From: Pseudonocardia sp. KRD291
Lineage (GTDB): Bacteria > Actinomycetota > Actinomycetes > Mycobacteriales > Pseudonocardiaceae
DNA length: 64,000 nt
Assembly: GCF_019263595.1 (NCBI RefSeq)
Contig: NZ_JADQDD010000002.1
Location: 1-64,000 of the forward strand
Direction: 5' to 3'
This document shows, piece after piece, positions 10,458-37,276 of the stretch. The position numbers and the translations under genes were made by a program. A model generated the notes under the pieces. It did no database searches. It saw only the letters and a program-made list of their open reading frames with translations, and was not told the origin of the DNA. Numbering within the stretch: position 1 is the stretch's first letter; each line of letters begins with the position of its first letter.

Positions 10458-10488
10458 AGCCGACACAGCAGAGTTGCAGGAGGACGGC

Positions 10489-11985
10489 ATGACCACGACC
10501 AGCCCGAGCCCCACCAGGCTCGACATCGAATGTCCCCATCTGACCGAGGTGTTCGTCGCGGGCGAGTGGGTCACTCCCGCCTCGTCCGCGACCCTGGACG
10601 TCGTCATGCCCTCGACCGGCGACACCGTCGCGACGGTCGCCCTGCCCGGCCGGGCGGAGGCCGACGCTGCGGTCGCAGCGGCGCGGAGCGCGTTCGACGA
10701 GGGCCCCTGGCCACGGATGTCGGTCGAGGAGCGGGCCGAGGTCTGCTCCCGGTTCGCCGACGAGCTCGAGTCCCGCATGGACCAGATGAACCGTCTGTGG
10801 GCGTTCGAGTCCGGCTTCCCGATCTCGCACGGTGAGATGATCAACTCCGGCGCCGGGAAGATGATCTGGCGGTACGCCATCGGGCGTGCGCCGGAGCTTC
10901 CCTGGGAGGAGCGGCGCACCGCGGCCGGCTCGGACGTGTTGCTGACCCGCGAGCCGATCGGCACCGTGCTGGCGATCATGACCTACAACGGACCGGTCGT
11001 GGAGCTCGGAATGAAGATCATCCCCGGGCTACTGGCGGGGTGCCCGATCGTGCTCAAGCCGGCTCCCGACTCACAGCTGACGACCCGCGTGGTGGCCGAC
11101 GCCGCCGCGGCGGCCGGGTTCCCGCGCGGCGTGGTCAGCGTGCTCGCGGCCGACCTGGAGACCAGCCAGTACCTCGTCAGCCATGACGACATCGACATGG
11201 TGCACATGACCGGCGGGGGGCCGGTCGCCGTCGACATCGTGTCCCGTACCTCCGCCCGGCTCGCCCGCACGGCACTCGAGCTCGGCGGCAAATCGCCCGC
11301 GATCATTCTCGACGACGCGAAGCTCGAGGACGTGCTGCCGACGCTGGTGCCCGGCGGGATCGGCGGCGTCGGCCAGGTCTGTGTCAGCCTCTCCAGGGTG
11401 CTGGTCTCCCGCGCCCGCTACGAGGAGGTAGTCGCCGCGCTGGTCGAGGAGTTCGCCAAGTACCCCGTGGGCGACCCGTTCGACCCGACTACCATCCTCG
11501 GGCCGCTGGGCAACGAGCGCGCCCTGCACCGGGTCGAGTCGATGCTCGAGCGTGCGGTCCAGGATGGCGCGAAGGTCGTGGCCGGCGGGCGCAGGCCGCC
11601 GGAGTTCGACGGCAAGGGCTTCTACTTCGAACCCACGCTGCTGCGCGACGTCGACCAGGACAGCTACATCGCGCAGGAGGAGGTCTTCGGCCCGATCATC
11701 TCGGTGATCGCCTACGACGACGTCGAAGACGCGATCGCGATCGCCAACAACACCCGGTTCGGGCTCGCGGCCTCGGTCTACTCGTCCGACTCCGACGCGG
11801 CGCTCGCGGTCGCCAGGCGGATCCGCTCCGGCGGTGTCGCCATCAACCTGGCCGGCGTGTGTCTGACCGAGCCCTTCGGCGGGGTCCGCCAGTCCGGGTG
11901 GGGGCGGGAGTGCGGCGCGGAGGGCATCCTCGAGTTCACCGACATCAAGCAGATCCTGCTCAGCGGCTCGTACGTCGACGCCTGA
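10489..11985 (+). CDS. Aldehyde dehydrogenase (atypical cofactor loops)
   Basis: A 498-residue member of the aldehyde dehydrogenase superfamily. E264 in LELGGKSPA and C298 in GQVCVS are in place. The usual PWNFP segment reads TYNGPV, and the usual FTGS loop reads MTGGGPV, so it is a divergent subgroup. ATG at 10489 was preferred to an upstream TTG because AGGAGG lies right before it. It is followed 17 bases later by an acyl-CoA ligase, suggesting that the aldehyde becomes an acid that is then CoA-activated. Confidence 0.87.
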   Translation: MTTTSPSPTRLDIECPHLTEVFVAGEWVTPASSATLDVVMPSTGDTVATVALPGRAEADAAVAAARSAFDEGPWPRMSVEERAEVCSRFADELESRMDQMNRLWAFESGFPISHGEMINSGAGKMIWRYAIGRAPELPWEERRTAAGSDVLLTREPIGTVLAIMTYNGPVVELGMKIIPGLLAGCPIVLKPAPDSQLTTRVVADAAAAAGFPRGVVSVLAADLETSQYLVSHDDIDMVHMTGGGPVAVDIVSRTSARLARTALELGGKSPAIILDDAKLEDVLPTLVPGGIGGVGQVCVSLSRVLVSRARYEEVVAALVEEFAKYPVGDPFDPTTILGPLGNERALHRVESMLERAVQDGAKVVAGGRRPPEFDGKGFYFEPTLLRDVDQDSYIAQEEVFGPIISVIAYDDVEDAIAIANNTRFGLAASVYSSDSDAALAVARRIRSGGVAINLAGVCLTEPFGGVRQSGWGRECGAEGILEFTDIKQILLSGSYVDA

Positions 11986-23542: not shown

Positions 23543-23579
23543 TATCGCTCGATGACGCGCGACGAAGGGACAGCCCACC

Positions 23580-24773
23580 ATGACGACCGCGGTCGACTTC
23601 AACCCGCTCTCCCCCGAGTTCCAGCAGCAGCCCTATCCGCTGTACAAGCAGGCCCGGGACGAGACGCCGGTCCGGTTCATCGAGGCGCTCAACGCCTGGG
23701 GCATCTTCCGGTACGAGGACTGCGCCTACACGTTCAAGCACCCGGAGCTGTTCTCGGCACGGGACTTCATCGCCAACGCCTTCGGCGAGTTCGACCCTGT
23801 CCCCGAAGTACCCTCGATCATCGCGATGGACCCGCCGGAGCACACCCGGCTGCGCAAGCTCGCGAACGTAGCGTTCACCCCGAAGGTGATCCGCGGCATG
23901 CAGGACCGGATCGAGAAGGTGATCGGGGACCTGCTCGACGAGGCGCAGCAGAAGGACGAGTTCGACTTCGTCTCCGACTTCGCCGCCTACGTGCCGGTCA
24001 GCGTGACCGCCGAGATCCTCGGCGTGGACGCGGTGCTCGGCCGGGGCGACTTCAAGCGATGGACCATGGACCTGATCAAGGCCCCCAGCCGGACGGCCCT
24101 GCCCGCAGACGAGCTCGCCCAGATGAAGCGCAGCGTCGAGGAGCTGCGCGCCTACTTCACCGACCAGATCGCCTACCGGCGCAAGAACCCCGGCAACGAC
24201 CTCATCTCCGCCCTCGTGCACGCCGAGGAGGAGAACCAGTCGCTCACCGAGACCGAGATCCTCAGCCTCGTCGCACTGATCCAGTTCGGCGGGTCGGAGA
24301 CCCCGTCGCACCTGATCGGCACATCGATGTGGGAGCTGTTCCAGCAGCCCGGGACGCGCGCCCGGGCGCAGGCCGACCCCGCGCTGTTCAGCGAGGTCGT
24401 CGACGAGACGATGCGCCACCAGTCGCCGGTGCACTTCGTGTTCCAGACGGCCACGCAGGACATCGCGATGCACGGCGAGACGATCCCGGCGGACTCGCTG
24501 GTGTTCTCCTTCATCGGTTCGGCCAACCGCGACGAGCGGGTGTTCGAGAACCCCGACACCTTCGACATCGACCGCCCCGGCAAGAACAAGCACCTGGGCT
24601 TCGCCCGAGGCGCGCACTACTGCATCGGCGACATGCTCGGGAAGCTCATGTGCGGCAGCGCCGTCCGCCAGGCCCTGCAGCGCATGCCCGCCCTGCACCC
24701 GGTCGAGCCGGACATGGAGTGGATGCCGTCGTTCTGGATCCGGGGCCCGAAGGAGCTACGGGTCGCCCCGTAG
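23580..24773 (+). CDS. Cytochrome P450
   Basis: A 397-residue P450. C348 in GFARGAHYCIG is the haem ligand, GGSET (237-241) the I-helix motif, and E276-x-x-R279 the K-helix pair. It is not a close copy of the P450 at 19968. It is followed 29 bases later by a ferredoxin gene, its probable electron donor. ATG at 23580 with GAAGGGA upstream. The reaction is probably hydroxylation of the island's substrate; position and substrate are unknown. Confidence 0.92.
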   Translation: MTTAVDFNPLSPEFQQQPYPLYKQARDETPVRFIEALNAWGIFRYEDCAYTFKHPELFSARDFIANAFGEFDPVPEVPSIIAMDPPEHTRLRKLANVAFTPKVIRGMQDRIEKVIGDLLDEAQQKDEFDFVSDFAAYVPVSVTAEILGVDAVLGRGDFKRWTMDLIKAPSRTALPADELAQMKRSVEELRAYFTDQIAYRRKNPGNDLISALVHAEEENQSLTETEILSLVALIQFGGSETPSHLIGTSMWELFQQPGTRARAQADPALFSEVVDETMRHQSPVHFVFQTATQDIAMHGETIPADSLVFSFIGSANRDERVFENPDTFDIDRPGKNKHLGFARGAHYCIGDMLGKLMCGSAVRQALQRMPALHPVEPDMEWMPSFWIRGPKELRVAP

Positions 24774-24802
24774 CCCATCCTGACCATTCGGAGGAACTCG
24801 GC

Positions 24803-25144
24803 ATGACCTACCTGATCGCCGGCCCCTGCATCGACGTGCTCGACCGTTCCTGTCTGGAGGAATGCCCCGTCGACTGCATCTACGAGGGGGACCGCAAGCT
24901 CTACATCCATCCCGACGAGTGCGTCGACTGCGGCGCCTGCGAGCCGGTGTGTCCCGTCGAGGCCATCACCGAGGACCTGGCGGCCACCCGCGACGAGCTC
25001 GCCTTCGTCGAGGACAACCGCCGGTTCTTCGTCGACGTCCTAGCCGGCCGCTCGGACGCGATCGGCGGGCCTGGCGGCGCGGCGGACGCCGGCCGGATCG
25101 GGGTCGATACACCGCTGGTCAGCGCACACCCCGTGACGAGCTGA
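24803..25144 (+). CDS. fdxA: 7Fe ferredoxin (FdxA-like)
   Basis: A 113-residue ferredoxin. The spacing C9, C17, C21, C25 then C40, C43, C46, C50 fits the Azotobacter-type [3Fe-4S][4Fe-4S] ferredoxins of actinobacteria. GGAGG precedes the ATG at 24803. It follows a P450, so electron supply is the likely role. The Gly/Ala-rich tail after residue 85 is not part of the cluster domain. Confidence 0.88.
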   Translation: MTYLIAGPCIDVLDRSCLEECPVDCIYEGDRKLYIHPDECVDCGACEPVCPVEAITEDLAATRDELAFVEDNRRFFVDVLAGRSDAIGGPGGAADAGRIGVDTPLVSAHPVTS

Positions 25145-25223: not shown

Positions 25224-25997
25224 TCACCAGAGCTCGCGCATCGCGCCCCACGGCCCGCCCTGTGCGCTGACGCCGCCGTCGACCGTGACGACCTGGCCGG
25301 AGATCATGGCCGCAGCCGGGGAGACGAGGAACTCGGCCACGTCGGCGACGTCGTCCGGTGTGCAGAGCCGTCCGACCGGGGTGTGGTCGACGAGCAACCG
25401 GCGGACGTCGTCCTGACCGTTCAGGTACGTCTCCAGCGAGTCGGTGAGCACCGGGCCCGGGACGATCGTGTTGGCGGTGACGCCTCGAGGGCCCAGCTCG
25501 ACGGCCCAGGACCGGGTCAGGGCCTCAAGCGCCGCCTTCGCCCCACCCAGCAGCCCGTGTCCGGCCTGGGCGAACCGGGCGTCCAGGCCACCGATCGTCA
25601 GCACCCGGCCACCGGCCCCCATCGCCGGGGCGGTGCGGTGCACCAGCTCGACCAGACTGTCGACGACCGTCGCGAACGTCATCCGGCTGTGCCTTACGCC
25701 GACGTCGACCAGCGGCTTGAACGCCGTCGATGCCGCGTTCGCGACGAGGGTGTCGAGCCGCCCGAAGCGCTGCAGGACGGAGTCGGCGAGACGGGCGACC
25801 TGCTCGGCATCACCCAGGTCCGCGGTGACGACGAGCGTGTCGGCCCCCTTCCCCGCGACGACCCGCGCGACCTCCTCGGCCGCCGCAGCGTCCCGGCGCC
25901 CGTGGACCACGCAGTCGTGGTCCACCGCGAGCCGTTCGAGGATCGCGCGGCCGATACCGCGGGCACTGCCGGTGACCAGGGCGACCCGCCTGGTCAC
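25224..25997 (-). CDS. SDR-family protein of the FabL-like type lacking the catalytic tyrosine
   Basis: A 257-residue short-chain dehydrogenase fold. TGSARGIG binds the cofactor and the NAAS segment (87-90) is like FabL enoyl reductases, which use Y-x6-K. Here K154 is present but the tyrosine position is H147, and the usual serine is glycine. It therefore either uses a different acid/base or is not a redox enzyme. GTG at 25997 overlaps the amidohydrolase stop. It is the last gene of the ten-gene run starting at 34081. Confidence 0.78.
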   Translation of the reverse strand: MTRRVALVTGSARGIGRAILERLAVDHDCVVHGRRDAAAAEEVARVVAGKGADTLVVTADLGDAEQVARLADSVLQRFGRLDTLVANAASTAFKPLVDVGVRHSRMTFATVVDSLVELVHRTAPAMGAGGRVLTIGGLDARFAQAGHGLLGGAKAALEALTRSWAVELGPRGVTANTIVPGPVLTDSLETYLNGQDDVRRLLVDHTPVGRLCTPDDVADVAEFLVSPAAAMISGQVVTVDGGVSAQGGPWGAMRELW

Positions 25998-26779
25998 CCG
26001 GCGATCCCGAGCAGGCGGGCGAGGTTCCCGCCGAGCACCGCGTCGGTGTCGTCGTCGGACAGGCCCAGGCTCCTGATCGTCTCGATCTCGGCGCCCGGGT
26101 CGGCCATCGGCCAGTCCGAGGCGAACACGACCCTCTCCGGCCCGTGCTTCTCGATCACGGCCTTGACCCGATCCGGCGCCAGGGTCGCCAGACCCGGCGG
26201 CCACGAGGTGTCCAGGTGCACGGGCAGCCCGACGACCGTCTCGACCGCCTCCTCGAACCGCCGGTAGCCGCCGAAGTGGCAGGCGATCACGTCCAGCCGG
26301 GGGAACTGGCGGACGATCTCGGCGAGCATGGCCGGGCTGCACCGCTCGCCCGGGTCCTCCCCGGCCGCGCCGACGTGGATGATCACGGCGAACTCGCCGG
26401 ACATCGCGTCCAGCGTGGCGAGCAGGCGGGGGTCATCGAGGCGCAGGTCCTGGAACATCGGGTGCACCTTGGCGCCCTTGAGCCCGTACGCGCGCAGGCT
26501 CGCGACGTTCTCCTCCGGGCTCAGCCCCGGGTGCACGGAGCCGAACCCGACGAAGCGGGCCGGGTCCAGCGACCCGGCGAACCGGTTGGCGTTGTCGACG
26601 CGGTCCGGGGTGTTGGCGACGCCCAGGCAGACCGAGCGGTCCACCCCGGAGGCCGCCATGACCTCGGTGAGGCTGTCGACGGTGCCGTCGCCGAAGCGCT
26701 TGAGGTCCGCGGGTGAGCCGGCGATCGCTTTCTTCGCGACCCGGTCCGGATACACGTGGGTGTGCCCGTCAATGATCAC
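25994..26779 (-). CDS. Amidohydrolase-2 family protein (ACMSD-like)
   Basis: A 261-residue TIM-barrel metal hydrolase. DGHTHVYP gives H6 and H8, KVHP, IIHVG and CHFGG supply further ligands, and FASDWPM carries the catalytic aspartate. Relatives remove carboxyl groups or hydrate/hydrolyse ring-cleavage products. It overlaps both neighbours by four bases, so it is tightly co-translated with two SDR genes. A second amidohydrolase lies at 30507 in the same operon. Confidence 0.85.
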   Translation of the reverse strand: MIIDGHTHVYPDRVAKKAIAGSPADLKRFGDGTVDSLTEVMAASGVDRSVCLGVANTPDRVDNANRFAGSLDPARFVGFGSVHPGLSPEENVASLRAYGLKGAKVHPMFQDLRLDDPRLLATLDAMSGEFAVIIHVGAAGEDPGERCSPAMLAEIVRQFPRLDVIACHFGGYRRFEEAVETVVGLPVHLDTSWPPGLATLAPDRVKAVIEKHGPERVVFASDWPMADPGAEIETIRSLGLSDDDTDAVLGGNLARLLGIAG

Positions 26780-27525
26780 AGCTTGTTCACCTCTCCCCCG
26801 TCGAACACGACGACGGATCCGGTCATGAAATCCGACAGCGGGGAGGCTAGGTAGCAGACCAGCGGGCCGAACTCCTCGCTGCGGCCCATCCGGCCGGCGG
26901 GGATCTTGCGCAGGCGCCGGGTCAGGGTCTCCGGGTCATCGAGGACGGCGGACTGGGCATCGGTCTCGAACGCGCCCGGCGCGATCGCCGTGACCTGCAC
27001 GCCGAACCGGCCCCATTCCGCGGCGAGCGCCTTGGTGAACTGCAGGATCGCGCCCTTCGACGCCGAGTACGACACCAGCACCGGCTTGCCGTTGATCCCG
27101 GACGTACTGGCGACGTTGATGACCTTGCCGGAGCGCTGGGCCAGAAAGTGCTTCCCCGCCGCCCTGGCCAGCACCGCCGGCGCCCGCACGTTGACCGCGA
27201 AGACCTCGTCCCACTGTTCCTGGGGCTGGTCGACGAACCGTCCGGCCGGGGCGATGCCGGCGTTGTTGACCACGATGTCGAGGCGCCCGAAACGCTCGAC
27301 GGCGAGGTCGGGCAGGGCGGCCACCTCGTCGGCCGATGCCATGTCGACGGTCGCGATCGCGATCCGGTCTGGGTGGGTGGCCTGCAGCTTCTCCAGGCCC
27401 GGGGTGGTCCGGGCGACCGCGAGCACCCGCGCGCCCTCGGCCGCGAGTGATTCGGCGGCTGCGCGCCCCAGCCCTCGGCTCGCGCCGGTGACGATCGCGA
27501 CCCGGCCTTCTAGATCGATGTCCAT
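26776..27525 (-). CDS. SDR-family oxidoreductase
   Basis: A 249-residue classical SDR with everything needed: TGASRGLG (13-20), NNAG (87-90), S140, Y153 and K157. ATG at 27525 was chosen because it places the Rossmann motif at the normal distance. It ends in a four-base overlap with the amidohydrolase. Substrate unknown; a hydroxyl/keto conversion on a CoA ester or ring intermediate is likely. Confidence 0.87.
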   Translation of the reverse strand: MDIDLEGRVAIVTGASRGLGRAAAESLAAEGARVLAVARTTPGLEKLQATHPDRIAIATVDMASADEVAALPDLAVERFGRLDIVVNNAGIAPAGRFVDQPQEQWDEVFAVNVRAPAVLARAAGKHFLAQRSGKVINVASTSGINGKPVLVSYSASKGAILQFTKALAAEWGRFGVQVTAIAPGAFETDAQSAVLDDPETLTRRLRKIPAGRMGRSEEFGPLVCYLASPLSDFMTGSVVVFDGGEVNKL

Positions 27526-27539
27526 GGTGCGTGCCTTTC

Positions 27540-28523
27540 TCAGATGTCGAGCACGAGCTCGTCGTCGAGCGACCGGGAGACGCAGATCAGCATGATCTCG
27601 CCGGCCTCCTGCTCGTCGCCGCTCAGGACGGAGTCGCGGTGATCGGGCCGCCCGGAGACGACGTCGGACTCGCAGGTGCCGCAGGTGCCCTCCCGGCAGC
27701 TCGACGGCACGGGAGCACCGGCCTCCTCCAGCACCTCGAGGATCGAGTGGTCCGGGCCCACCTCGACCTCGATCCCGGACCGGGCGCACCGCACCCGGAA
27801 GCCCTGCGACCGCACGGGTTCGCCGATCTCCTTGGGCGCGAAACGTTCCACGTGCAGCGCGCCGTGCGGCCAGCTCGCGCACTGCTGCTCGACGGCCTGC
27901 AGCAGAGGTTCGGGACCGCAGCAGTAGACGAGCGTGCCCTCGGCGGGTGTCCCGAGGATCTCGCCGAGCGGGAGCAGCCCGTGGCTGTCCTGCGGGTGGA
28001 CCCGCACCCGATCGCCGTGCGCGGCGAGCTCGTCGCGGAACGCCATCGAGGCCGCGCGCCGGCCCCCGTAGACGAGACTCCAGTCCGCACCCGACGCCGC
28101 CGCCTGCGCGATCATCGCCAGGATCGGGGTGATGCCGATGCCGCCCGCGACGAACACGTAGCGCGGCGCCGGCTCCAGTGCGAAGTGGTTGCGCGGGCCG
28201 CGGACGGTGAGGATGTCGCCGACCCCGATCCGGTCGTGCACGTGCTCCGACCCGCCGCGGCTCCCGGGTTCGCGCAGCACCGCGATCCGCCAGGTCTCGC
28301 CGTTGCCGGGGTCGCCGCAGAGCGAGTACTGGCGTTCGAGGTGCTCGTCGAGTACGAGGTCGATGTGCGAGCCCGGGGTCCAGGACGGCAGCGCGCCGCC
28401 GCCGCAGCGGCGCAGCTCCAGCGACACCACGTCCTCGGCCACGGCCTCACGGGCGATGACCTCGACCTTCAGCTCCTCCTCGGCCGCGGTGCGCGCCGGC
28501 GCGCCTTCCGCCGGGCCGGTCAC
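27540..28523 (-). CDS. FAD/2Fe-2S oxidoreductase (phthalate-dioxygenase-reductase type)
   Basis: A 327-residue reductase. RQYSLCG (64-70) binds flavin, GGIGITP (127-133) binds NAD(P), and a C-terminal plant-type 2Fe-2S domain has C276, C281, C284 and C314. It takes electrons from NAD(P)H to a terminal oxygenase or ferredoxin. With the Rieske ferredoxin at 30101 it could feed the two P450s, as no Rieske oxygenase alpha subunit is present in the window. GTG start overlaps the ligase stop. Confidence 0.9.
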   Translation of the reverse strand: MTGPAEGAPARTAAEEELKVEVIAREAVAEDVVSLELRRCGGGALPSWTPGSHIDLVLDEHLERQYSLCGDPGNGETWRIAVLREPGSRGGSEHVHDRIGVGDILTVRGPRNHFALEPAPRYVFVAGGIGITPILAMIAQAAASGADWSLVYGGRRAASMAFRDELAAHGDRVRVHPQDSHGLLPLGEILGTPAEGTLVYCCGPEPLLQAVEQQCASWPHGALHVERFAPKEIGEPVRSQGFRVRCARSGIEVEVGPDHSILEVLEEAGAPVPSSCREGTCGTCESDVVSGRPDHRDSVLSGDEQEAGEIMLICVSRSLDDELVLDI

Positions 28524-30064
28524 CGCGCGCCGCCCTTCCCCGCGGCGATCTCCACGACCGAACGCTTGGCGATCTTGCCGACGGCGTTCTTGGGCAGCGA
28601 GTCCAGCGTCAGCACCTGACCGGGGACCTTGATACTGGGCAGCCCGGCGGCGCGGCAGTGCGCCTGCAGCTCCGCGGTGTCGAGCGTGGCGCCGGCGCGC
28701 AGCGCAACCGCCGCAAGCACGGACTCACCCCACTCGGTGTCCGGTAGTCCGACGACCGCGGCCTCGAGGACCGCGGGGTGGGCGTAGAGCACGTTCTCGA
28801 TCTCCGACGGGGTGATGTTGTAGCCACCGCGGATGATCAGGTCCTTCTTGCGGTCGACGATGTAGAGGTAGCCCTCGTCGTCGAACTGCCCGATGTCACC
28901 GGAGCGCACCCACCCGTCGACCAGCGTCTCCGCCGTCTTCTCCGGGTTCCGGTGGTAGCCGAGCATGGTGTACGGGGTGTGGAACAGGACCTCGCCGCGC
29001 TCGCCGGGGGCGGCGTCGCCGCCCTCGTCGTTCACCACCCGCACGTCGGTCAGGAAGGACGGCCGCCCGGCGGATGCCGTGAGGTCGGTGCGGCCCTCGG
29101 CGATCCGCCGGTGGTCGTTCTGGCGCAGCATGGTCGCGATCGAGGCGACCTCGGCCATCCCGTAGAGCTGGCTGAACACCGGCCCGAACCGCCTGACCAG
29201 CTCGGTGACCCGGTCCGGGGCGATCGGCGCGGCGCCGTACCCGATCGAGGTCAGTGTGGGCAGCGCGGAGCGTTCCAGGCCGGCTTCGAGCACGCGGTAG
29301 AGCATGGTCGGCACCAGGTAGGTGTGCGTGGCGCCCTGCTTCGTCGCCTCGGCCGCGAACGCGCCGGGGTCGAAACCCCGGGAGTCGAGGAACCCGACGG
29401 CACCGCCGAGGAAGAACGTCGGCGCGAGGGTGATCTGCACGCTGGAGTTGTGCGGGATGGCGGTCAGCCAGCGCGAGCTCGCCGACATCCCGTACTCGAG
29501 CCCGGCGACCATCGCGTGTGTCGACACCGCGCGGGCGTCGAACAGGATGCCCTTGGGCGCCCCGGTCGTCCCGCTGGTGTAGACGATGCAGAACTCGTCC
29601 TCGGGCGCCCGGGCGTGCACCGTCGGCGGCGGCGCCGACGAGGCGCTTGCGAGCGAGCCGTACCCGGCGTCGGACGCGTCGTCGACGTCGAGCACGGCCA
29701 TGCCGAACTCGGCGCCGAGCGTCTCGGCCAGGTCGCGGAGGGGCCCCTCGGTGAGCAGGACGCGGGCGCCGGCGTTGCCGAAGATCGCCCGGTACTCGTC
29801 CTCGCTCATCCGGAAGTTGAGCCCGCAGTACACCGCGCCCGCCTTGGCGCAGCCCACGATCGCCTCGGCGACCTCGATCCGGTTGCGCAGCAGCACCGCG
29901 ACACGGTCCCCCGGGCGCACGCCGAACCGGCCCTGCAGGGTGTTCGCGAGGCGGTTGGAGCGTTCGTCGAGCTCGGCGTAGCTCAGTGACCGGTCACCCT
30001 CGAACGCCGCGGTCGCGTGCGGGGTGTTCCGGGCATGCGCCAGTACGGCGACACCGATGTCCAT
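28520..30064 (-). CDS. Acyl-CoA synthetase (AMP-forming)
   Basis: A 514-residue ligase. YTSGTTGAPKG is the ATP loop, QLYGMAE the adenylate motif, SGDIGQFDDEGY and IIRGGYNITPSEIE the hinge, and K in VGKIAKR the C-terminal lysine. It differs clearly from the ligase at 12003, so the pathway activates at least two acids, or one acid in two contexts. It sits between the Rieske ferredoxin and its reductase in the operon. Confidence 0.9.
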   Translation of the reverse strand: MDIGVAVLAHARNTPHATAAFEGDRSLSYAELDERSNRLANTLQGRFGVRPGDRVAVLLRNRIEVAEAIVGCAKAGAVYCGLNFRMSEDEYRAIFGNAGARVLLTEGPLRDLAETLGAEFGMAVLDVDDASDAGYGSLASASSAPPPTVHARAPEDEFCIVYTSGTTGAPKGILFDARAVSTHAMVAGLEYGMSASSRWLTAIPHNSSVQITLAPTFFLGGAVGFLDSRGFDPGAFAAEATKQGATHTYLVPTMLYRVLEAGLERSALPTLTSIGYGAAPIAPDRVTELVRRFGPVFSQLYGMAEVASIATMLRQNDHRRIAEGRTDLTASAGRPSFLTDVRVVNDEGGDAAPGERGEVLFHTPYTMLGYHRNPEKTAETLVDGWVRSGDIGQFDDEGYLYIVDRKKDLIIRGGYNITPSEIENVLYAHPAVLEAAVVGLPDTEWGESVLAAVALRAGATLDTAELQAHCRAAGLPSIKVPGQVLTLDSLPKNAVGKIAKRSVVEIAAGKGGAR

Positions 30065-30100
30065 GTGTCGTGTCTCCTCGGGTTGCGCGGGTTCCCGCGC

Positions 30101-30514
30101 TCAGACGTAGAGCACGACGTCATCGCCGTCGACGACGACGGTGTAGACGCGCACTCGGGCACGCTCGGTCTTGACCAGGGCCCGCCCGGTGTCGAGCCGG
30201 AACTCGTAGCCGTGCCAGGGACAGGTGATGAACTCGTTGTGCCGGCCGTAGGAGTACTCGTGCGGTGCGGTGTCGGCCATCGTGCCCTTGACGACGCCCT
30301 CACACAGCGGCGCGCCGTGGTGCGGGCACGTGTTCATCAGCGCGTGGTATCGGCCGTCGACGTTGAGCACCCCGATCGACCGGCCGTCGATCTCGACGAT
30401 CTTCCGGTCGCCCGGCGGCAGCTCGTCGACGCGGCATACGACATGCGGCGTGCCTTTCGGATGCACGGCGTCCTCCTTCTGGACGAGGTCGGGCCCGGTC
30501 GTCGTCTCAGTCAA
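30101..30514 (-). CDS. Rieske 2Fe-2S ferredoxin
   Basis: A 137-residue Rieske protein. C63-x-H65 (CPHHG) and C98-x2-H101 (CPWHGYEF) are the cluster ligands. It is somewhat longer than bacterial Rieske ferredoxins because of a 23-residue N-terminal tail and a longer loop. The start is TTG at 30514, overlapping the amidohydrolase stop, with GGAG six bases before it. It is an electron carrier only: there is no catalytic iron domain. Confidence 0.87.
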   Translation of the reverse strand: MTETTTGPDLVQKEDAVHPKGTPHVVCRVDELPPGDRKIVEIDGRSIGVLNVDGRYHALMNTCPHHGAPLCEGVVKGTMADTAPHEYSYGRHNEFITCPWHGYEFRLDTGRALVKTERARVRVYTVVVDGDDVVLYV

Positions 30515-31652
30515 GGCGGTCTCCGTAGACCTCTCGGGGGGTCTCGACCTGGATCCGGCGGCGCAGCTCCGGCGTGAGCCCCTGAAGCGCGCGGTCCGGG
30601 TTGTCGAAGTCCCAGTGCGGGTAGTCAGAGCTGTACATCAGCACGCGCTCGGCGTGCATCATCTCCATCAGCGGCGCCAAGTGGCGCGGGTCGTGCGGCT
30701 CGACGAAGGGCTGCGTGGTGAACCGGACGTGGTCGAGCAGGTACTCCGACGGCGGCCGGGTCAGCCACGGCACCTCGTTGCGCAGACCCTTCCAGTCCCG
30801 GTCGAGCTTCCACATGACCTCGAGCGCCCACATGAACCCGCCCTCGGCGATCACATGCTTGAGCTTCGGGAACTTCTCGAACACGCCGTGGCAGATCATG
30901 CTCAGCGTGTTGGACTGGTGGATCTGGCCCAGCGCGGTGTGCCACTCCAGGTAGAAGGTCGGCGTGCCGGCCATCTGGGGCGCCTTCGCGAACACGTTCT
31001 CGGTGCCGCTGGGGTGTGTGACCAGCGGCAGCTCGTGCCGGGCGCAGGCCTCGTAGATGGGCCAGTAGTGCTTCTCGCCCATCAGGATCTGCCCGAGTGG
31101 CATGAACACCGCGACCACGCCGTCGCGACCGGCCACCCGGTCGATCTCGGCGACCGCGGCCTCCGGGTCCTGCGGGGCGACCACGAGGGCACCGCGGAAG
31201 CGCTTGTCCTCCTGCAGCCAGCGCTCGGTCATCCACTCGTTGTAGGCCGAGGCGATGGTCGCGGCGACCATGCCGTCGGGCATTGCGCCGATGCCCAGGC
31301 ACTGCCCGGAGAGCAGCACGGCCCGGTACACGTGGTGCGGGTCGAGCAGCTGCTTGGCCGTGAACACCGGGTCCGTGGCAGGCGGGACGCCGGGCTGTGC
31401 CGCGTCCGCGCGGTAGGCACCGGCCGGGTTGATGTAGAGGTAGTCCAGCGGCAGCGTGAACTGGGCCGCGGCCATCCCCTTCGCCCAGTCGTCGCCGCTG
31501 ATGCCCAGGCGCGTCTTCCACGTCTCGCTCATGTACGGCATCAGGTCGCGGATGCCGTTGACGAAGTTCGGGTGGACGTCGGAGTCGATCACTCCGTTGC
31601 GCTTCAGGTCGAGCTCGTCGGTGGCGCCTCTGGGCGCCTCGGTCGTCGTCAT
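30507..31652 (-). CDS. Amidohydrolase-2 family protein (ACMSD-like)
   Basis: A 381-residue metal-dependent hydrolase/decarboxylase. DSDVHPNF is the N-terminal metal site in the form D-x-H, LVTHPSG and ICHG give further histidines, and YSSDYPHWDFD carries the catalytic aspartate. ATG at 31652 follows GGAAGGAG, deciding the start. Relatives act on ring-cleavage acids. Two members in one operon suggest two hydrolytic or decarboxylating steps. Confidence 0.87.
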   Translation of the reverse strand: MTTTEAPRGATDELDLKRNGVIDSDVHPNFVNGIRDLMPYMSETWKTRLGISGDDWAKGMAAAQFTLPLDYLYINPAGAYRADAAQPGVPPATDPVFTAKQLLDPHHVYRAVLLSGQCLGIGAMPDGMVAATIASAYNEWMTERWLQEDKRFRGALVVAPQDPEAAVAEIDRVAGRDGVVAVFMPLGQILMGEKHYWPIYEACARHELPLVTHPSGTENVFAKAPQMAGTPTFYLEWHTALGQIHQSNTLSMICHGVFEKFPKLKHVIAEGGFMWALEVMWKLDRDWKGLRNEVPWLTRPPSEYLLDHVRFTTQPFVEPHDPRHLAPLMEMMHAERVLMYSSDYPHWDFDNPDRALQGLTPELRRRIQVETPREVYGDRLD

Positions 31653-31680: not shown

Positions 31681-32838
31681 CTATCGGGCGCGTCCGAGGA
31701 GCGCGAGGTTGTAGTACTGGGCCCCCGAGCCGGCGCCGGCCGCGATCGCGACCTCGGCCCCGGGGATCTGCCGCTCGCCCGCCTGCCCGCGCAGCTGGCG
31801 GACGGCTTCGGCGATCTTGAGTGTGGGTGCTCCCCAGCCGATGTGGCTGAAGGACAGGAGTCCGCCGTCGGTGCAGGTGGGCAGCTTGCCGTCCGGCCCG
31901 ATGCCGGTGGCGAGCGCGAAGTCGGTTCCCTCGCCGACCTCGCAGAAACCCAGCGCCTCGAACTGGCGGGCGACCTCGAGCGAGTTGACGTCGTAGAGCT
32001 GGGCCACGTCGACGTCACACGGGCCGAGCCCGGCGAGCCCGAAGGCCTTCGCCGCCGCCCGCCTCCCGATCGGCCAGACCTGCTCGTAGCGGGGTGGGTC
32101 GACATACTGCTGACGCATCCACTCCATGCCCGCGCCGAGCACGACGACCGGGTGGTGCGGCAGGTCGCGGGCACGTTCGAGGGTGGTCACGACGATCGCG
32201 GCGCCGCCCTCGGAGGCCAGGCAGAGATCCAGCAGCGTGAACGGGTCGACGACCGGCGGCGCGGCCAGCACGTCGTCCGCGGTGAACGGCCCACGCCCGT
32301 GCATGACCGCCTCGGGGTTCGCGGACCCGGTGTTGCGGATCGTCGCGGCGATCTCCGCAGCGCCGCGCCGGGCGTGCGGGAACCGGGCGAGATGGCGCTG
32401 GGCGACCAGGGCGAAGTGCGCGGCGGTGAACGCGCCGAACGGTTCGACGAACTCGTTGCCCGGGCGGGTGTAGGACGCGACCTGGCCGCCGCCCAGCACG
32501 CCCGCCTGCCCGCCTGTGATCAGGATCGTGGTGGCCTGCCCGGTGAGGATGGCCCCGGCCGCGTCGAGCAGCGCCGGGACCCCCTGCGGGTAGGAGTCGC
32601 CGATCCAGTCGAGCGGCACGCCGAGCAGGGTCGACCAGTCCGCAGAGCCCGGCGCCAGCTCGGTTCCGCCGGGGCCGGGCCAGCGGGCCGCGATGCCGTC
32701 GACGTCGGTATGGCTCAGGCCGGCGTCGGCGAGGGCGAGCTTGGCCGCGTCCAGGGCGACCTGCAGCGAGTTGCGCTGCGAGCGCTTCCGCTGCGGCGTC
32801 ACCCCGACGCCGACGACGGCGACACCGGACAGGTTCAC
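31681..32838 (-). CDS. Thiolase-fold lipid-transfer-protein-like enzyme (Ltp2-type, probable aldolase)
   Basis: A 385-residue thiolase-superfamily protein without the nucleophilic cysteine: the site reads IGDSYPQG (S82). The HPxGATG motif is replaced by FSHIGWGAP. Proteins of this kind pair with DUF35 proteins and, as in steroid side-chain removal (Ltp2 with ChsH2), cleave carbon bonds by retro-aldol chemistry instead of thiolysis. The DUF35 gene lies directly upstream with a four-base GTGA overlap, strongly supporting the pairing. The substrate is inferred to be a branched or tertiary hydroxyacyl-CoA. Confidence 0.83.
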   Translation of the reverse strand: MNLSGVAVVGVGVTPQRKRSQRNSLQVALDAAKLALADAGLSHTDVDGIAARWPGPGGTELAPGSADWSTLLGVPLDWIGDSYPQGVPALLDAAGAILTGQATTILITGGQAGVLGGGQVASYTRPGNEFVEPFGAFTAAHFALVAQRHLARFPHARRGAAEIAATIRNTGSANPEAVMHGRGPFTADDVLAAPPVVDPFTLLDLCLASEGGAAIVVTTLERARDLPHHPVVVLGAGMEWMRQQYVDPPRYEQVWPIGRRAAAKAFGLAGLGPCDVDVAQLYDVNSLEVARQFEALGFCEVGEGTDFALATGIGPDGKLPTCTDGGLLSFSHIGWGAPTLKIAEAVRQLRGQAGERQIPGAEVAIAAGAGSGAQYYNLALLGRAR

Positions 32839-33218
32839 GAGGTGGCCTCCGCGAACGCCGGCTGGGTCCGGCCGTCACGCTCGACCCAGGTGACCTCGAC
32901 GGCACTGCCGATCTGCGGGAGCCGGTCGCCGACGAGGGTGGCGAGCATGCTCCAGCCCTCCTCCAGGTCGATGACGCCGAGCCCGAACGGCACCGTGAAG
33001 CCGGGGCTCGGGGCCTTGTGTACGACGGTGGCGCTGTAGACGGTCCCGCGCCCGGAGCTCGGCCGGTAGACCCAGTCCTCCGACAGGCACGCGGGACAGG
33101 CGACCTGCGGGGTGAAGAAGCTGTGGCCGCAGTCCCGGCACACGGGGCGCACAAGCTCACGGCGGGCGGCCGCGGCCCAGAAGTCCGCGGTCAGCGCCGT
33201 GCTGTCGAGCACGGTCAC
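32835..33218 (-). CDS. DUF35 OB-fold/zinc-ribbon protein, partner of the thiolase-like enzyme
   Basis: A 127-residue protein with a rubredoxin-like zinc ribbon (C27, C30, C41, C44) followed by an OB fold that binds acyl-CoA. GTG at 33218 overlaps the stop of the gene before. DUF35 proteins form complexes with Ltp-type thiolases and are needed for their activity or stability. Here there is no fused MaoC domain, unlike ChsH2, so hydration must come from another enzyme. Confidence 0.88.
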   Translation of the reverse strand: MTVLDSTALTADFWAAAARRELVRPVCRDCGHSFFTPQVACPACLSEDWVYRPSSGRGTVYSATVVHKAPSPGFTVPFGLGVIDLEEGWSMLATLVGDRLPQIGSAVEVTWVERDGRTQPAFAEATS

Positions 33219-34081
33219 GCCCCACCCACCAGCAGCCGGTGCGCGGCGTCCTTGACGGTCATCCCGACCTCGACACCACGCCGGGCCGCGGCCTCGTTGT
33301 GCGCGCTGATCAGGCCGTGGGCGTAGCCGAGGAAGGCGTCGCCGATCGGCGCGGTCGTGCCGTCGATGCAGGCGCCGGCCAGCCCGGCCTCGTCCGCGGT
33401 AACCAGGCCGGACACGCCCGAGCGGTTCTTGCTCATCCCGCCGTCGTGGCAGATGAACCCCCACGGGTTCGCCTCGAGCAGGAACTTCGCGCCGCTGCGT
33501 CCGGTGTGTCCTGCCGTGACCAGCACGCTGGCCTGCTCGTCCTCGGGGTAGGCCCAGACGATCGAGTCGGTCACCACCACCCGCCGGCCGCTCTCGTGGC
33601 GCTCCACGATCTCGCGGCGGACCTTGTTGCCGACCTCGGTGTCGGTGGGGTCGTTGTCCAGCAGGACATCCGCTGCCTCGGCCACACTCATCCCGGCCGT
33701 CACCCCGCAGATCTCGGCGACGTAGTTGACGTGCTTCACGACACCGCTGCGGTAGAGGTCCTCACCATTACCCATGTCCGCGGTCATCCCGTCCGCGGTG
33801 GCCGCGGGGATGCCCAGCGCCTCCAGGTACCAGAGCCCGGCGATGCCGGCGCCGTCCTTGCCGACGCAGGCGTCGTGCCCGATGACCCCGCGCGGCCGGT
33901 GGATCGCCACCATCCGCGCCGGCAGCACCCCGATGTAGGAAGCGGGCACGACGACGTCGGTACCGGTGTTGCGGGCGTCGACGTACCGCGCCGAGTCCAT
34001 CGTGACGATCCGCCGGCCGTCCCGCTCCACCACGATCTCCTGAGGGTGGTCCTGCTCCCGCTCCAGCAGCGTCTTGCTCAT
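33215..34081 (-). CDS. Conserved protein of unknown function heading the ten-gene operon
   Basis: A 288-residue soluble protein that I do not recognise. It has several glycine- and charge-rich motifs (HRPRGVIGHDACVGKDG, TADMGNGEDLY, CHDGGMSKNRSG, TTAPIGDAFLGYAHG) that look like an enzyme active site with histidines and acids. There is no signal peptide or membrane segment. ATG at 34081 follows GGTGAG. It overlaps the DUF35 gene by four bases and is the first gene after the regulon box, so it is expressed with the aldolase pair. It may process the same intermediate. Confidence 0.7.
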   Translation of the reverse strand: MSKTLLEREQDHPQEIVVERDGRRIVTMDSARYVDARNTGTDVVVPASYIGVLPARMVAIHRPRGVIGHDACVGKDGAGIAGLWYLEALGIPAATADGMTADMGNGEDLYRSGVVKHVNYVAEICGVTAGMSVAEAADVLLDNDPTDTEVGNKVRREIVERHESGRRVVVTDSIVWAYPEDEQASVLVTAGHTGRSGAKFLLEANPWGFICHDGGMSKNRSGVSGLVTADEAGLAGACIDGTTAPIGDAFLGYAHGLISAHNEAAARRGVEVGMTVKDAAHRLLVGGA

Positions 34082-34413: not shown

Positions 34414-35187
34414 TCAGGTGCCGTACATCTCCCAGCTCAGGACCTCGTCCATCTGCCGCTGGTAGTGCCGCTCGAAGTAGGCCAGCGTGTCGTCCATGTG
34501 CTCGCGCATGGCTGCCTCGGCCTTGTCGCCCTCACCGGACTCGATCCCGATGCAGACCTCGTCGTGCGCCCGCCAGACGATCTTGCGGAACCGACGCGGG
34601 TAGTCGACACCCAGAACGGTCCCGTCGGTGATCCAGTGCAGGGAGTTGATGCAGTACCCGAACAACGGGTTCTCCGAGCCCCAGGCGACGAGATCATGGA
34701 ACCGGCGGTTCTCGTCCAGGAACGCCTCACGGTCGTCCAGACTCTCGCCCATCCGGTCCACCGACCCCCGCAGGTCCGCGAGCAGCCCATGATCACTGCG
34801 CTCTGCGCACAGCCGCGCCGTGAGCGGCTCCAGCAGCTGGCGTGTCTCGATCACCGCGCGGAACGGCGTGTCGGCGAACTGCATGAGCAGGGCGAGCGTG
34901 CTGGCCAGGTGCCGCGAGTCCGGCGACGTGACCACCGGCCCACCACCGGGCCCCGGCCGGATCATCAGGACGCCCTGCAGTTCCAGGACCCGCAGAGCCT
35001 CGCGCAGCGTGTTGCGCCCGACGTTGTAGGTCTCGAGCATGTCCCGCTCGGGCGGCAGATGGGCGCCCGGCTGCAGGTTGCGGCCCTTGATCTCCTTGAC
35101 GATCCGCTGCGCGATCACCGTCGCCCGCTTCGGAGGCATGCCGGACGGCGCCGAGCGCGGCGCGACGTCCTTACGGGCGGCGGTCAT
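34414..35187 (-). CDS. GntR-family (FadR/FCD) transcriptional regulator
   Basis: A 257-residue regulator. The winged helix is at about 20-85 (LPPERDMLETYNVGRNTLREALR) and the FCD domain follows with the usual histidines (ENRRFHDLVAWGSENPLF, REHMDDTLAYF). ATG at 35187 was chosen over GTG at 35193 because GGGAG lies five bases before the ATG and the GTG falls inside that site. It lies in the middle of the box-bearing promoters and is one of three candidate controllers of them. Confidence 0.88.
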   Translation of the reverse strand: MTAARKDVAPRSAPSGMPPKRATVIAQRIVKEIKGRNLQPGAHLPPERDMLETYNVGRNTLREALRVLELQGVLMIRPGPGGGPVVTSPDSRHLASTLALLMQFADTPFRAVIETRQLLEPLTARLCAERSDHGLLADLRGSVDRMGESLDDREAFLDENRRFHDLVAWGSENPLFGYCINSLHWITDGTVLGVDYPRRFRKIVWRAHDEVCIGIESGEGDKAEAAMREHMDDTLAYFERHYQRQMDEVLSWEMYGT

Positions 35188-35242
35188 GGTCACTCCCTGT
35201 CCAGCGCGGAACTTTCCTGACCATCGTACTCAGAGATCCCGC

Positions 35243-36102: not shown

Positions 36103-36125
36103 TAGTATCATAGTATTCATGGACT
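36103..36125 (+). promoter_or_regulatory. Regulon-box variant overlapping the 36119 start codon
   Basis: CATAGTATTCATGGACT (36109-36125) matches the copy at 10441 in 12 of 17 positions and runs through the start codon of the rightward gene. TAGTAT at 36103-36108 could be the -10 box. A regulator bound here would block initiation directly. Confidence 0.5.
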
Positions 36126-37276
36126 CCACAGAGAAGTGGTTCGGCTTCGGTGCCGCCGAACGTGCGTTGCAGGAGGAGGCGGCCGCTCTCACGGCCTCCG
36201 TCGCGGACATCTCGGCCGAGGCGGACGCGATGAGCGAGATCCATCCCGGGATACGCGAGGCGCTGCGGGCGAGTGGGCTGGCCGGGCTGATGGTGCCCGC
36301 CGAGTTCGGCGGGCGCGCGGAGAAGGTCGACCCGCTGGCCGTCTGCCTGGTGCGCGAGGTCCTGATGAAAGGCTCATCGCACCTGGACTCGATGTTCGCG
36401 CTGCAGGGCATCGGCAGCTACGCGATCACCGTCGGCGGCACGGACGAGCAGCGCCGGCACTGGCTGCCCCGCGTCGCCTCGGTGGAGACCCTCGCCGGCC
36501 TGGCGCTGACCGAGGACAACGCCGGCTCCGACCTGAAGAACGTATCCACGACCGTCACGGAGAAGAACGGTGAGCTCGTCGTGCACGGGGAGAAGACCTT
36601 CATCTCCAACGCCGGCGCCGCGGACTTCTTCGTCACGCTGGTGAAGGAGGAGCTCGACGGCGGTCCGTCGCTGTCGCTGGTGCTCGTGCCCGCCGACGCT
36701 CCCGGTGTCAGCACCCGGCCGAGCCCCGAGCTGATCGCCCCGCACGTGCTCGGCGACGTCTCCTTCGACGGTGTCGCGCTCCCGCCCGAGGCGCGCCTCG
36801 GCGTGCCCGGCAAGGCGATGTCGCTGGTGCTCAGCACGCTCGCCGTGTTCCGGGTGTCGGTCGCGGGCGCGGCCGTCGGGCTGGCGACCGGAGCGCTGGA
36901 GGAGGCCGCCCGGCACGCCCGGACCCGCGAGCAGTTCGGCCGGCCGCTGCTCAAGCACGGCCCGGTCGCCCAGCTGCTCGCCGACTCCTGGAACGACGTC
37001 GAGATGGCCCGGTTGCTCACCTACCAGGCCGCCGCCTTCGCACGCGAGGACGCCCGCGCGGCGCTGAACCGCTCGTCGATGGCCAAGGTCGCCGCGACCG
37101 AGGCGGCCAGCCGCGTCGTGGACCGGTCGGTACAGGTGATGGGCCGCTGGGGTCTGATCGCGAACAGCCCGATCGAGCGCTACTACCGCCAGGCCCGGCC
37201 GATGCGCGTCTACGAGGGTGCCTCAGAGGTCCTCAAGCTCGGCATCGCGACGACGCTCTGCGCCGAGGTCGACTGA
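36119..37276 (+). CDS. Acyl-CoA dehydrogenase, probably translated from a leaderless mRNA
   Basis: A 385-residue dehydrogenase. LTEDNAGSDLKN is the FAD loop, TREQFGRPLLKHGPVAQ the dimer region, and VYEGASEVLKLGIA carries the catalytic glutamate as in standard short/medium-chain enzymes. No Shine-Dalgarno sequence precedes the ATG: the ten bases before it follow a TAGTAT -10-like hexamer, so transcription should start at or next to the ATG. Leaderless mRNAs are common in actinobacteria. It stands alone between two divergent/convergent neighbours. Confidence 0.88.
   Translation: MDSTEKWFGFGAAERALQEEAAALTASVADISAEADAMSEIHPGIREALRASGLAGLMVPAEFGGRAEKVDPLAVCLVREVLMKGSSHLDSMFALQGIGSYAITVGGTDEQRRHWLPRVASVETLAGLALTEDNAGSDLKNVSTTVTEKNGELVVHGEKTFISNAGAADFFVTLVKEELDGGPSLSLVLVPADAPGVSTRPSPELIAPHVLGDVSFDGVALPPEARLGVPGKAMSLVLSTLAVFRVSVAGAAVGLATGALEEAARHARTREQFGRPLLKHGPVAQLLADSWNDVEMARLLTYQAAAFAREDARAALNRSSMAKVAATEAASRVVDRSVQVMGRWGLIANSPIERYYRQARPMRVYEGASEVLKLGIATTLCAEVD

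What the first reader, a model, noticed from the sequence alone, without database searches (positions are those of the whole stretch)
31681..34081. Aldolase-type thiolase, free DUF35 protein and an unknown enzyme as one co-translated unit
Three genes overlap by four bases each. The thiolase-fold protein has S82 where the nucleophilic cysteine should be and no HPxGATG motif. The DUF35 protein has no MaoC domain, unlike ChsH2. The first gene (33215-34081) belongs to no family I know and has conserved-looking H/D/G motifs. Together they may be a new carbon-carbon-cleaving complex.
Basis: partly seen in the sequence, partly recalled or inferred. Interest (0 to 1): 0.7.

Follow-up and report, generated by a model that had tools for sequence, protein, structure and literature searches.

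The report
Aldolase pair with unstudied partner protein
Some soil bacteria carry what looks like a carbon-carbon-cutting enzyme pair whose genes usually sit right behind the gene of a doubled-up protein of unknown function that seems to have evolved together with it, which makes that protein a good target for finding a new enzyme.

Summary
Gene A (33215-34081), a free DUF35 protein (32835-33218) and a thiolase-fold protein without the thiolase cysteines (31681-32838) overlap by 4 bases each. The pair is best read as a CoA-thioester retro-aldolase of Ltp2/Sal type: the catalytic Tyr is kept (Y282), but His332 and Val284 replace the known proton donors. Free DUF35 proteins are ordinary. Gene A fits no family model reliably; it is a tandem duplication of a ~130-residue domain whose predicted fold resembles DUF1805 (1qw2, Z 8.4), itself of unknown function. 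Gene A orthologs (64% or more) directly precede DUF35 in 17 of 20 neighbourhoods. In a 396-genome sample the close Ltp occurs only where gene A does. Between lineages, gene A's distances follow Ltp (r 0.91) but not DUF35 (0.43) or the ligase (0.58). Distant relatives (29-45%) mostly sit in other catabolic neighbourhoods, and six same-genus genomes lack it: accessory, not housekeeping. The operon adds a CoA ligase and an amidohydrolase-fold dinuclear monooxygenase with Rieske ferredoxin and reductase. Gene A's activity, and any three-protein complex, remain unproven. Verdict: new variant of a known kind, with an uncharacterised partner.

The parts
33215..34081 (-). Gene A (288 aa): tandem duplication of a DUF1805-like domain (repeat 1 about residues 17-141, repeat 2 about 158-284); polar residues invariant in 11 diverse members: D29, S48, N119, H192, D213, K218, N262
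   Evidence: (halves 34% identical over 127 positions, E 5e-19)
32835..33218 (-). Free DUF35 protein (127 aa): zinc ribbon C27/C30/C41/C44 plus OB fold, no MaoC
31681..32838 (-). Ltp-type thiolase-fold protein (385 aa) without the thiolase cysteines; Y282-D-V-N and H332
30507..31652 (-). Amidohydrolase-fold dinuclear monooxygenase (ARO) candidate; D25, H27, H213, E270, D343, H346, D348 align with AibH2 D25, H27, H211, E265, D337, H340, D342
30101..30514 (-). Small Rieske [2Fe-2S] protein, presumed electron carrier of the ARO
   Evidence: role inferred from PMC10811679 and PMC7782822
28520..30064 (-). Acyl-CoA ligase (AMP-binding); in 8 of 17 loci its counterpart sits between DUF35 and Ltp
27540..28523 (-). 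Ferredoxin reductase with C-terminal Fer2, similar to the Rhodococcus gene annotated PDR/VanB family
26776..27534 (-). SDR (SDR1); start taken at 27534, not verified
25994..26779 (-). Second, smaller Amidohydro_2 protein
34414..35193 (-). GntR/FCD regulator upstream of gene A
36119..37276 (+). Acyl-CoA dehydrogenase (ACAD2), same neighbourhood, other strand
10474..11985 (+). Aldehyde dehydrogenase about 20 kb away, 68.7% identical to the one in the Rhodococcus WAY2 cluster; membership in the pathway is inferred

Best explanation
The trio is the C-C-cleaving core of a catabolic operon. [quoted passage not shown] The substrate acid is activated by the operon's CoA ligase, its beta-hydroxyl is installed either by the ARO monooxygenase (Rieske ferredoxin plus reductase) or by acyl-CoA dehydrogenase plus a hydratase, and the released aldehyde or ketone goes to ALDH/SDR enzymes. 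Gene A is a dedicated partner of this aldolase: two DUF1805-fold domains, each with a conserved D / (S or G)(Y or H)xG / DxxxGK-like / N set, probably an acid-base enzyme acting at the step next to the cleavage, perhaps taking the place that the MaoC hydratase half has in ChsH2/Shy. Shown here: gene order, conservation, domain content, kept and lost residues, predicted fold, co-occurrence and distance correlation. Inferred: aldolase chemistry, the roles of Tyr282 and His332, the ARO's role, every activity of gene A, any complex.
For: Ltp: best solved relatives by sequence are 4u4e, 9myr and 6ok1 (that 9myr is CtSal and 6ok1 TcLtp2 is my matching of the listed molecule names and of the 50-residue Tyr spacing to PMC12329534). 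Tyr of YD[V/I] and His of HIGWG are kept in 17 of 17 orthologs read, window included; catalytic residues from PMC12329534 passages. DUF35: ribbon and OB fold. Coupling of gene A: directly upstream of DUF35 in 17 of 20 ortholog neighbourhoods, 12 of the 17 with a -4 overlap by a first-ATG/GTG rule. In 396 actinobacterial genomes an Ltp of 57% or more occurs in own, G162, G247 and G258, the same four that have gene A at 64% or more. In plasmids the 3 records with Ltp at 67% or more are the 3 with gene A at 75% or more. Of 8 gene-A genomes searched (of 14 found), 7 have an Ltp of 59% or more. Between-lineage distances: A-Ltp r 0.911 over 93 pairs, A-ligase 0.575; on 11 loci common to seven genes, A-Ltp 0.872, A-ACAD2 -0.841. 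A 38% relative of gene A in G461 is beside a zf-ChsH2-bearing protein, a thiolase and an AMP ligase. Pathway: ARO ligands aligned, Rieske and reductase adjacent, ALDH conserved.
Against: The proton donors of Ltp2 and of Sal are both absent, so the active site is a third type and aldolase activity is not assured. DUF35's distances do not follow gene A's between lineages (r 0.43 over 93 pairs; 0.094 on the common set), so by this measure the trio is not one unit. Five genomes have Ltp of 45-46% with DUF35 next to it and no gene A. In G550 the gene before DUF35 is a P450, gene A lying about 17 kb away. L015's 2.1 Mb MAG has gene A and no Ltp match at E 1e-20. No ARO, Rieske or reductase label was found beside the core in the Patulibacter and f32 loci (L012-L014, L027, L029, L031). 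Crotonase-type hydratases are also in the neighbourhood, so gene A need not be the hydratase. The distance correlation rests on about four lineages with non-independent pairs. In some searches only the best 6 and 4 candidates per genome were scored where there were more.
Confidence: 0.5

Rival explanations
1. Gene A is an independent pathway enzyme (isomerase, hydrolase, lactonase or decarboxylase) acting on a free acid or sugar-acid-like intermediate; it is next to the aldolase only because the genes are co-regulated.
For: Distant relatives stand in neighbourhoods without a DUF35/Ltp label: before a RuBisCO-like protein and a four-carbon acid sugar kinase in four haloarchaeal plasmids (in one search the RuBisCO-like gene is annotated only as a short piece) and, as a single-domain protein, in two actinobacteria (L033, L034); with HMG-CoA lyase, CoA transferase and RraA in Aminobacter; with ACAD/ECH/mmsB in Rhizobium. 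Seven polar residues are invariant across 11 members.
Against: Between lineages gene A's distances follow Ltp and not ACAD2 or thiolase_cat; A precedes DUF35 directly in 17 of 20 loci.
Confidence: 0.35
2. The thiolase-like/DUF35 pair is not an aldolase but a Claisen-type or acyl-transfer enzyme or a decarboxylase, with gene A as third component as HMG-CoA synthase or PhlA is elsewhere.
For: DUF35-thiolase pairs with a third protein are known (6esq and 5m3k; HMG-CoA synthase and PhlA named in PMC12329534); the GHP His is kept; G461 has a gene A relative next to a zf-ChsH2-bearing protein and a thiolase with Thiolase_N and an HPIGATG motif.
Against: No nucleophilic Cys and no second Cys in the window's protein; the Ltp2/Sal Tyr is kept in 17 of 17.
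Confidence: 0.2
3. Gene A is a non-catalytic scaffold or regulator of the aldolase.
For: Coupling to Ltp by order and distance; the only clear solved relative of its fold, 1qw2, is listed as a protein of unknown function.
Against: D, S, H, K and N residues invariant across 11 members down to about 30% identity, in two repeats, look like ligand or catalytic sites; superfamily members occur away from aldolases.
Confidence: 0.15

Closest known systems
Ltp2-ChsH2(DUF35) steroid aldolase of T. curvata (taken to be 6ok1) and CtSal-CtShy(DUF35) (taken to be 9myr)
   Same: Thiolase fold without thiolase chemistry, catalytic Tyr of the YD motif, partner DUF35 with zinc ribbon and OB fold
   Different: DUF35 is free, not fused to MaoC; Val284 at the His296/Cys304 position; His332 at the Tyr344/Gln352 position; gene A as extra partner
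BbsAB, PhlABC and the archaeal thiolase/HMG-CoA synthase/DUF35 complex (7pxp, 5m3k, 6esq)
   Same: Free DUF35 protein with a thiolase-fold partner, in two cases with a third protein (passage)
   Different: Those keep thiolase or acyl-transfer chemistry and their third protein is of the thiolase superfamily (recalled, not from a call); here the extra protein is DUF1805-like
DUF1805 (PF08827; TA1206, 1qw2)
   Same: Fold of each repeat of gene A (Z 8.4, 90 residues, rmsd 2.8); weak profile match in 8 of 11 superfamily members at E up to 1
   Different: Below the curated cut-off for the window's protein; gene A is a tandem duplication with its own D/H/K/N set; no function for DUF1805 met in the searches made
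Amidohydrolase-related dinuclear oxygenases (AibH2, SfbO, PtmU3)
   Same: 30507-31652 matches 8sm7 at 316 bits and aligns with all seven AibH2 residues checked; Rieske ferredoxin and reductase adjacent
   Different: Substrate unknown; in one operon with a CoA ligase and an Ltp/DUF35 pair

Membership tests
Ltp2/Sal-type aldolase | Thiolase-superfamily fold without nucleophilic Cys | tested here: met
   by sequence:
Ltp2/Sal-type aldolase | Catalytic-base Tyr in the YDxx motif | tested here: met
   Y282, 17 of 17 orthologs; motif from PMC12329534
Ltp2/Sal-type aldolase | Proton donor: second Tyr (Ltp2) or Cys of YDC (Sal) | tested here: not met
   His332 and Val284 at these positions; so it is said to work like one, not filed as an Ltp2 or a Sal
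Ltp2/Sal-type aldolase | Physical complex with DUF35 | not testable with these tools
   adjacency only
Ltp2/Sal-type aldolase | Retro-aldol cleavage of a beta-hydroxyacyl-CoA | not testable with these tools
   none
Ltp2/Sal-type aldolase | Place in the Ltp2 or Sal clade of a tree | not tested
   no tree was built
ChsH2/Shy | MaoC domain fused to DUF35 | tested here: not met
   only zf-ChsH2 and OB_ChsH2_C above cut-off
DUF35 (PF01796/PF12172) | Zinc ribbon and OB fold above curated cut-offs | tested here: met
   59.4 vs 27.1 and 38.1 vs 23.2 bits
DUF1805 (PF08827) | Score above curated cut-off | tested here: not met
   27.3 vs 29.5 bits
DUF1805 (PF08827) | Shared fold with TA1206 (1qw2) | tested here: inconclusive
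   Z 8.4, rmsd 2.8, 90 aligned of 102 residues, next entry 4.9; Foldseek E 1.1
Y-family DNA polymerase (PF00817 IMS) | Polymerase domain beyond a short local stretch | tested here: not met
   best stretch 28 of 148 profile positions; Dpo4 at E 0.13 only
ARO monooxygenase (gene 30507-31652) | PF04909 with the dinuclear ligand set and a neighbouring Rieske ferredoxin | tested here: met
   metal content and activity not testable

The most novel reading that the evidence does not exclude
Gene A, DUF35 and Ltp form a three-component C-C lyase in which a tandem DUF1805-fold protein, a class with no known activity, is the enzyme that makes or receives the aldol intermediate, replacing the MaoC hydratase of the steroid systems; the same fold would then perform related acid-base chemistry in the RuBisCO-like-protein operons of haloarchaea.
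Probability: 0.22. Interest if true: 0.75.

Novelty: new variant of a known kind. Interest (0 to 1): 0.5.

Why it matters
It ties an unnamed protein family found in actinobacteria, alphaproteobacteria and haloarchaea, with a DUF1805-like fold of unknown function, to a defined type of chemistry, and gives it a small, testable operon in culturable soil actinobacteria. It also puts an emerging oxygenase class (AROs) in one operon with an Ltp/DUF35 pair and suggests a third arrangement of the aldolase active site, of use to those who look for new C-C lyases.

Tried and rejected
Gene A as a DNA polymerase Y relative: Pfam IMS passes its cut-off but with a best stretch of 29 residues, and a PDB profile search gives Dpo4 at E 0.13: rejected as a local look-alike. 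Gene A in viruses: 11 stretches matched a pattern, none encodes a relative; BFVD gave no match below E 0.001 for repeat 2; PHROGs none for gene A. Foldseek against PDB gave nothing below 0.001 for the whole protein or for repeat 2. PF08827 searched six-frame in the own genome: no match at E 0.1, while it rang in 4 of 14 control genomes. P450s of the window as a clue to the substrate: nearest solved ones are a CYP125 ancestor, CYP101s and a miscellany: uninformative; the 530-aa ORF at 23552-25144 carries a ferredoxin at its end and overlaps the P450 at 23580-24773.

Paper searches: PtmU3+amidohydrolase+monooxygenase (5 papers), DUF1805 (2 papers, listing only), DUF35+aldolase+thiolase+Ltp2, amidohydrolase/Rieske/acyl-CoA synthetase/thiolase/DUF35, at least 4 of 5 (3 papers, none on such a cluster by title), RuBisCO-like/DUF1537/isomerase/apionate (53, 20 listed), YunC/TA1206/DUF1805 (91, of the 20 listed one concerns the protein by its title and counts, the rest look like author names), platensimycin/PtmU3/thiolase/aldolase/DUF35 (592, 20 listed), six terms with Pseudonocardia (0). 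I met no paper describing gene A or this cluster in these searches; most subscription journals are not held. Read: PMC12329534 passages, PMC7782822 passages, PMC10811679 part 1 of 3; everything else listing or start of abstract only.

Not examined or dropped: of the 13 plasmid records, 10 were opened (not H3, H11, H12); H3 (Rhodococcus USK10) has gene A and Ltp about 2 kb apart on one strand and is not among the 20 neighbourhoods. L012's contig ends soon after gene A; a contig of the same genome starts with DUF35-ligase-Ltp. Gene labels are best BLAST matches to annotated Rhodococcus, haloarchaeal and alphaproteobacterial proteins, so genes unlike these were left unlabelled. Thiolase motif names (NEAF, GHP, CxG) are recalled.
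Full report
What is there. The window lies in a Pseudonocardia-like genome: the nearest relatives of gene A, 89-93% identical, are eight Pseudonocardia loci; the own assembly is G000:C112. The finding's three genes are real minus-strand genes: gene A 33215-34081, a DUF35 protein 32835-33218 and a thiolase-fold protein 31681-32838, overlapping by GTGA twice.

The pair. DUF35: zf-ChsH2 and OB_ChsH2_C above cut-offs, no MaoC; C27-x2-C30-x10-C41-x2-C44 is the C4 ribbon described in PMC12329534 (passages). Free DUF35 proteins are known in several solved complexes, so this is ordinary. The thiolase-fold protein has Thiolase_C_1 and its best solved relatives by sequence are 4u4e, 9myr and 6ok1, the last two of which I take to be CtSal and TcLtp2. 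It lacks both thiolase Cys residues and keeps the GHP His as H332. TcLtp2 uses Y294 and Y344, CtSal Y302 and C304 (PMC12329534). In the alignment the Tyr of 6ok1's YDHF falls on Y282 here, and the residue 50 further on, the place of Y344, is H332; the His296/Cys304 place is Val284. Tyr and His are kept in 17 of 17 orthologs read, the window's included. So this is an aldolase-like active site of a third make, and membership in Ltp2 or Sal proper fails on the proton donor.

Gene A. No family model covers it reliably. Its halves align over 127 positions at 34% identity, E 5e-19: a tandem duplication. AlphaFold2 gave mean pLDDT 84 for the whole (18 sequences, pTM 0.59) and 91.4 with pTM 0.89 for repeat 2 alone (30 sequences). 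Repeat 2 matches 1qw2 (TA1206, the DUF1805 structure; that link is recalled) at Z 8.4, rmsd 2.8, 90 aligned residues, the next entry being 4.9. That is just above the level at which the tool warns of common arrangements, and Foldseek itself gave only E 1.1, but DUF1805 is also the Pfam family that 8 of 11 superfamily members touch at E up to 1, below cut-off for the window's protein. Across these 11 members, down to 30% identity to gene A, D29, S48, N119, H192, D213, K218 and N262 do not vary.

Conservation of the unit. I examined 20 neighbourhoods of gene A orthologs with at least 64% identity (window; L004-L017; G258, G162, G247; two Rhodococcus plasmids). DUF35 follows directly in 17, of which 12 have a 4-base overlap by a first-ATG/GTG rule (the others: +4 twice, -1, -11, +52). 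In eight Pseudonocardia loci and the window the order is A-DUF35-Ltp with the ligase downstream, in the other eight A-DUF35-ligase-Ltp. The three exceptions: L012, where the contig ends but another contig of that genome begins with DUF35-ligase-Ltp; L017/G550, where the pair lies about 17 kb away on the same contig behind a P450; L015, a 2.1 Mb MAG with no Ltp match. Of 396 actinobacterial genomes, an Ltp of at least 57% identity occurs in the own genome and three others, exactly those with a gene A of at least 64%; five further genomes have an Ltp of 45-46% with DUF35 next to it and no gene A (only the best 6 and 4 candidates per genome were scored). In the plasmid collection the three records with Ltp at 67% or more are the three with gene A at 75% or more; a fourth record has Ltp at 47%. 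Of 8 gene-A genomes searched for Ltp, 7 have one at 59% or more.

Distances. Over 17 loci, pairwise distances of gene A correlate with Ltp at r 0.965, ligase 0.909, DUF35 0.876, thiolase_cat 0.874, GntR 0.835, ACAD2 0.789; the highest pair of all is ACAD2-thiolase_cat at 0.980 (the sets of loci differ). Counting only pairs between lineages, A-Ltp is 0.911, A-ligase 0.575, A-DUF35 0.43 and DUF35-Ltp 0.563 (93 pairs each); on the 11 loci that hold all seven genes, between lineages, A-Ltp is 0.872 while A-ACAD2 is -0.841, A-thiolase_cat -0.586 and A-DUF35 0.094 (26 pairs). So gene A and Ltp appear to share a history that the neighbouring beta-oxidation genes do not, and the small DUF35 protein does not visibly follow either. 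About four lineages contribute and pairs are not independent.

The wider family. All 13 plasmid matches of gene A are annotated as hypothetical or not annotated; ten of them, outside Rhodococcus, are 29-34% identical. Four haloarchaeal ones stand before a RuBisCO-like protein (in one a short annotated piece) and a four-carbon acid sugar kinase; single-domain ones do so in two actinobacteria (L033, L034). Others lie in Rhizobium, Aminobacter, Ponticoccus and Methylovirgula neighbourhoods with no DUF35 label. In the family of the window's genome 7 of 150 genomes have a relative, own included, only the window's being above 60%; the six other same-genus genomes listed have none, although eight Pseudonocardia loci were found: the cluster is accessory. 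In one of the seven, G461, a 38% relative is divergent from a 432-aa protein with a zf-ChsH2 ribbon at its end (its OB part is below cut-off), a thiolase and an AMP ligase. A second paralog (50-55%) sits directly upstream of gene A in L012, L013, L014 and L031.

The operon. Downstream of the trio is an Amidohydro_2 protein whose best solved relatives are 8sm7 (316 bits), 8sm6, 8sm9, 8sm8 and AibH2 (6m1w), with PtmU3 further off. AibH2's D25, H27, H211, E265, D337, H340 and D342 (PMC7782822) align with D25, H27, H213, E270, D343, H346, D348 (numbering). With the Rieske protein and the reductase it has the layout that PMC10811679 (part 1 read) uses to recognise such oxygenases. PtmU3 is told to be a beta-hydroxylase that accepts CoA-ligated substrates (PMC7782822), which would make the kind of alcohol that a retro-aldolase needs; this link is inference, and no such oxygenase was labelled beside the core in the Patulibacter and f32 loci. 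An ALDH 68.7% identical to that of the Rhodococcus cluster is in the window about 20 kb away, fitting an aldehyde product.

Judgement. The pair as CoA-thioester retro-aldolase is the most likely reading (about 0.6 on its own); gene A as a functional partner of Ltp is well supported (about 0.75); what gene A does is open, and 'hydratase in the MaoC position' is my leading guess at no more than about a quarter. The finding is a real combination of a known aldolase type with an uncharacterised protein family.

Noticed in passing
window 27540-31652: Genes for an amidohydrolase-fold dinuclear monooxygenase system (oxygenase, Rieske ferredoxin, reductase) in the same operon; no paper on such a cluster met.
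   Followed up: partly
window 33215-34081: Pfam's IMS (DNA polymerase Y) model passes its gathering cut-off on gene A with a best stretch of 29 residues; automatic annotation may call such proteins ImpB/MucB/SamB family.
   Followed up: yes
L037, L040, L041, L042, L033, L034: Gene A relatives, two-domain in haloarchaea and single-domain in two actinobacteria, before a RuBisCO-like protein and a four-carbon acid sugar kinase.
   Followed up: partly
L068 4732-8175: A 38% gene A relative divergent from a 432-aa protein ending in a zf-ChsH2 ribbon, a thiolase and, further on, an AMP ligase.
   Followed up: partly
L012, L013, L014, L031: A second gene A paralog (about 50-55% identical) directly upstream of gene A; the window's genome gave only one full match.
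   Followed up: no
window 19968-21176 and 23580-24773: Two cytochrome P450 genes, one nearest to CYP125/CYP101 types among solved structures; substrate not deducible.
   Followed up: partly
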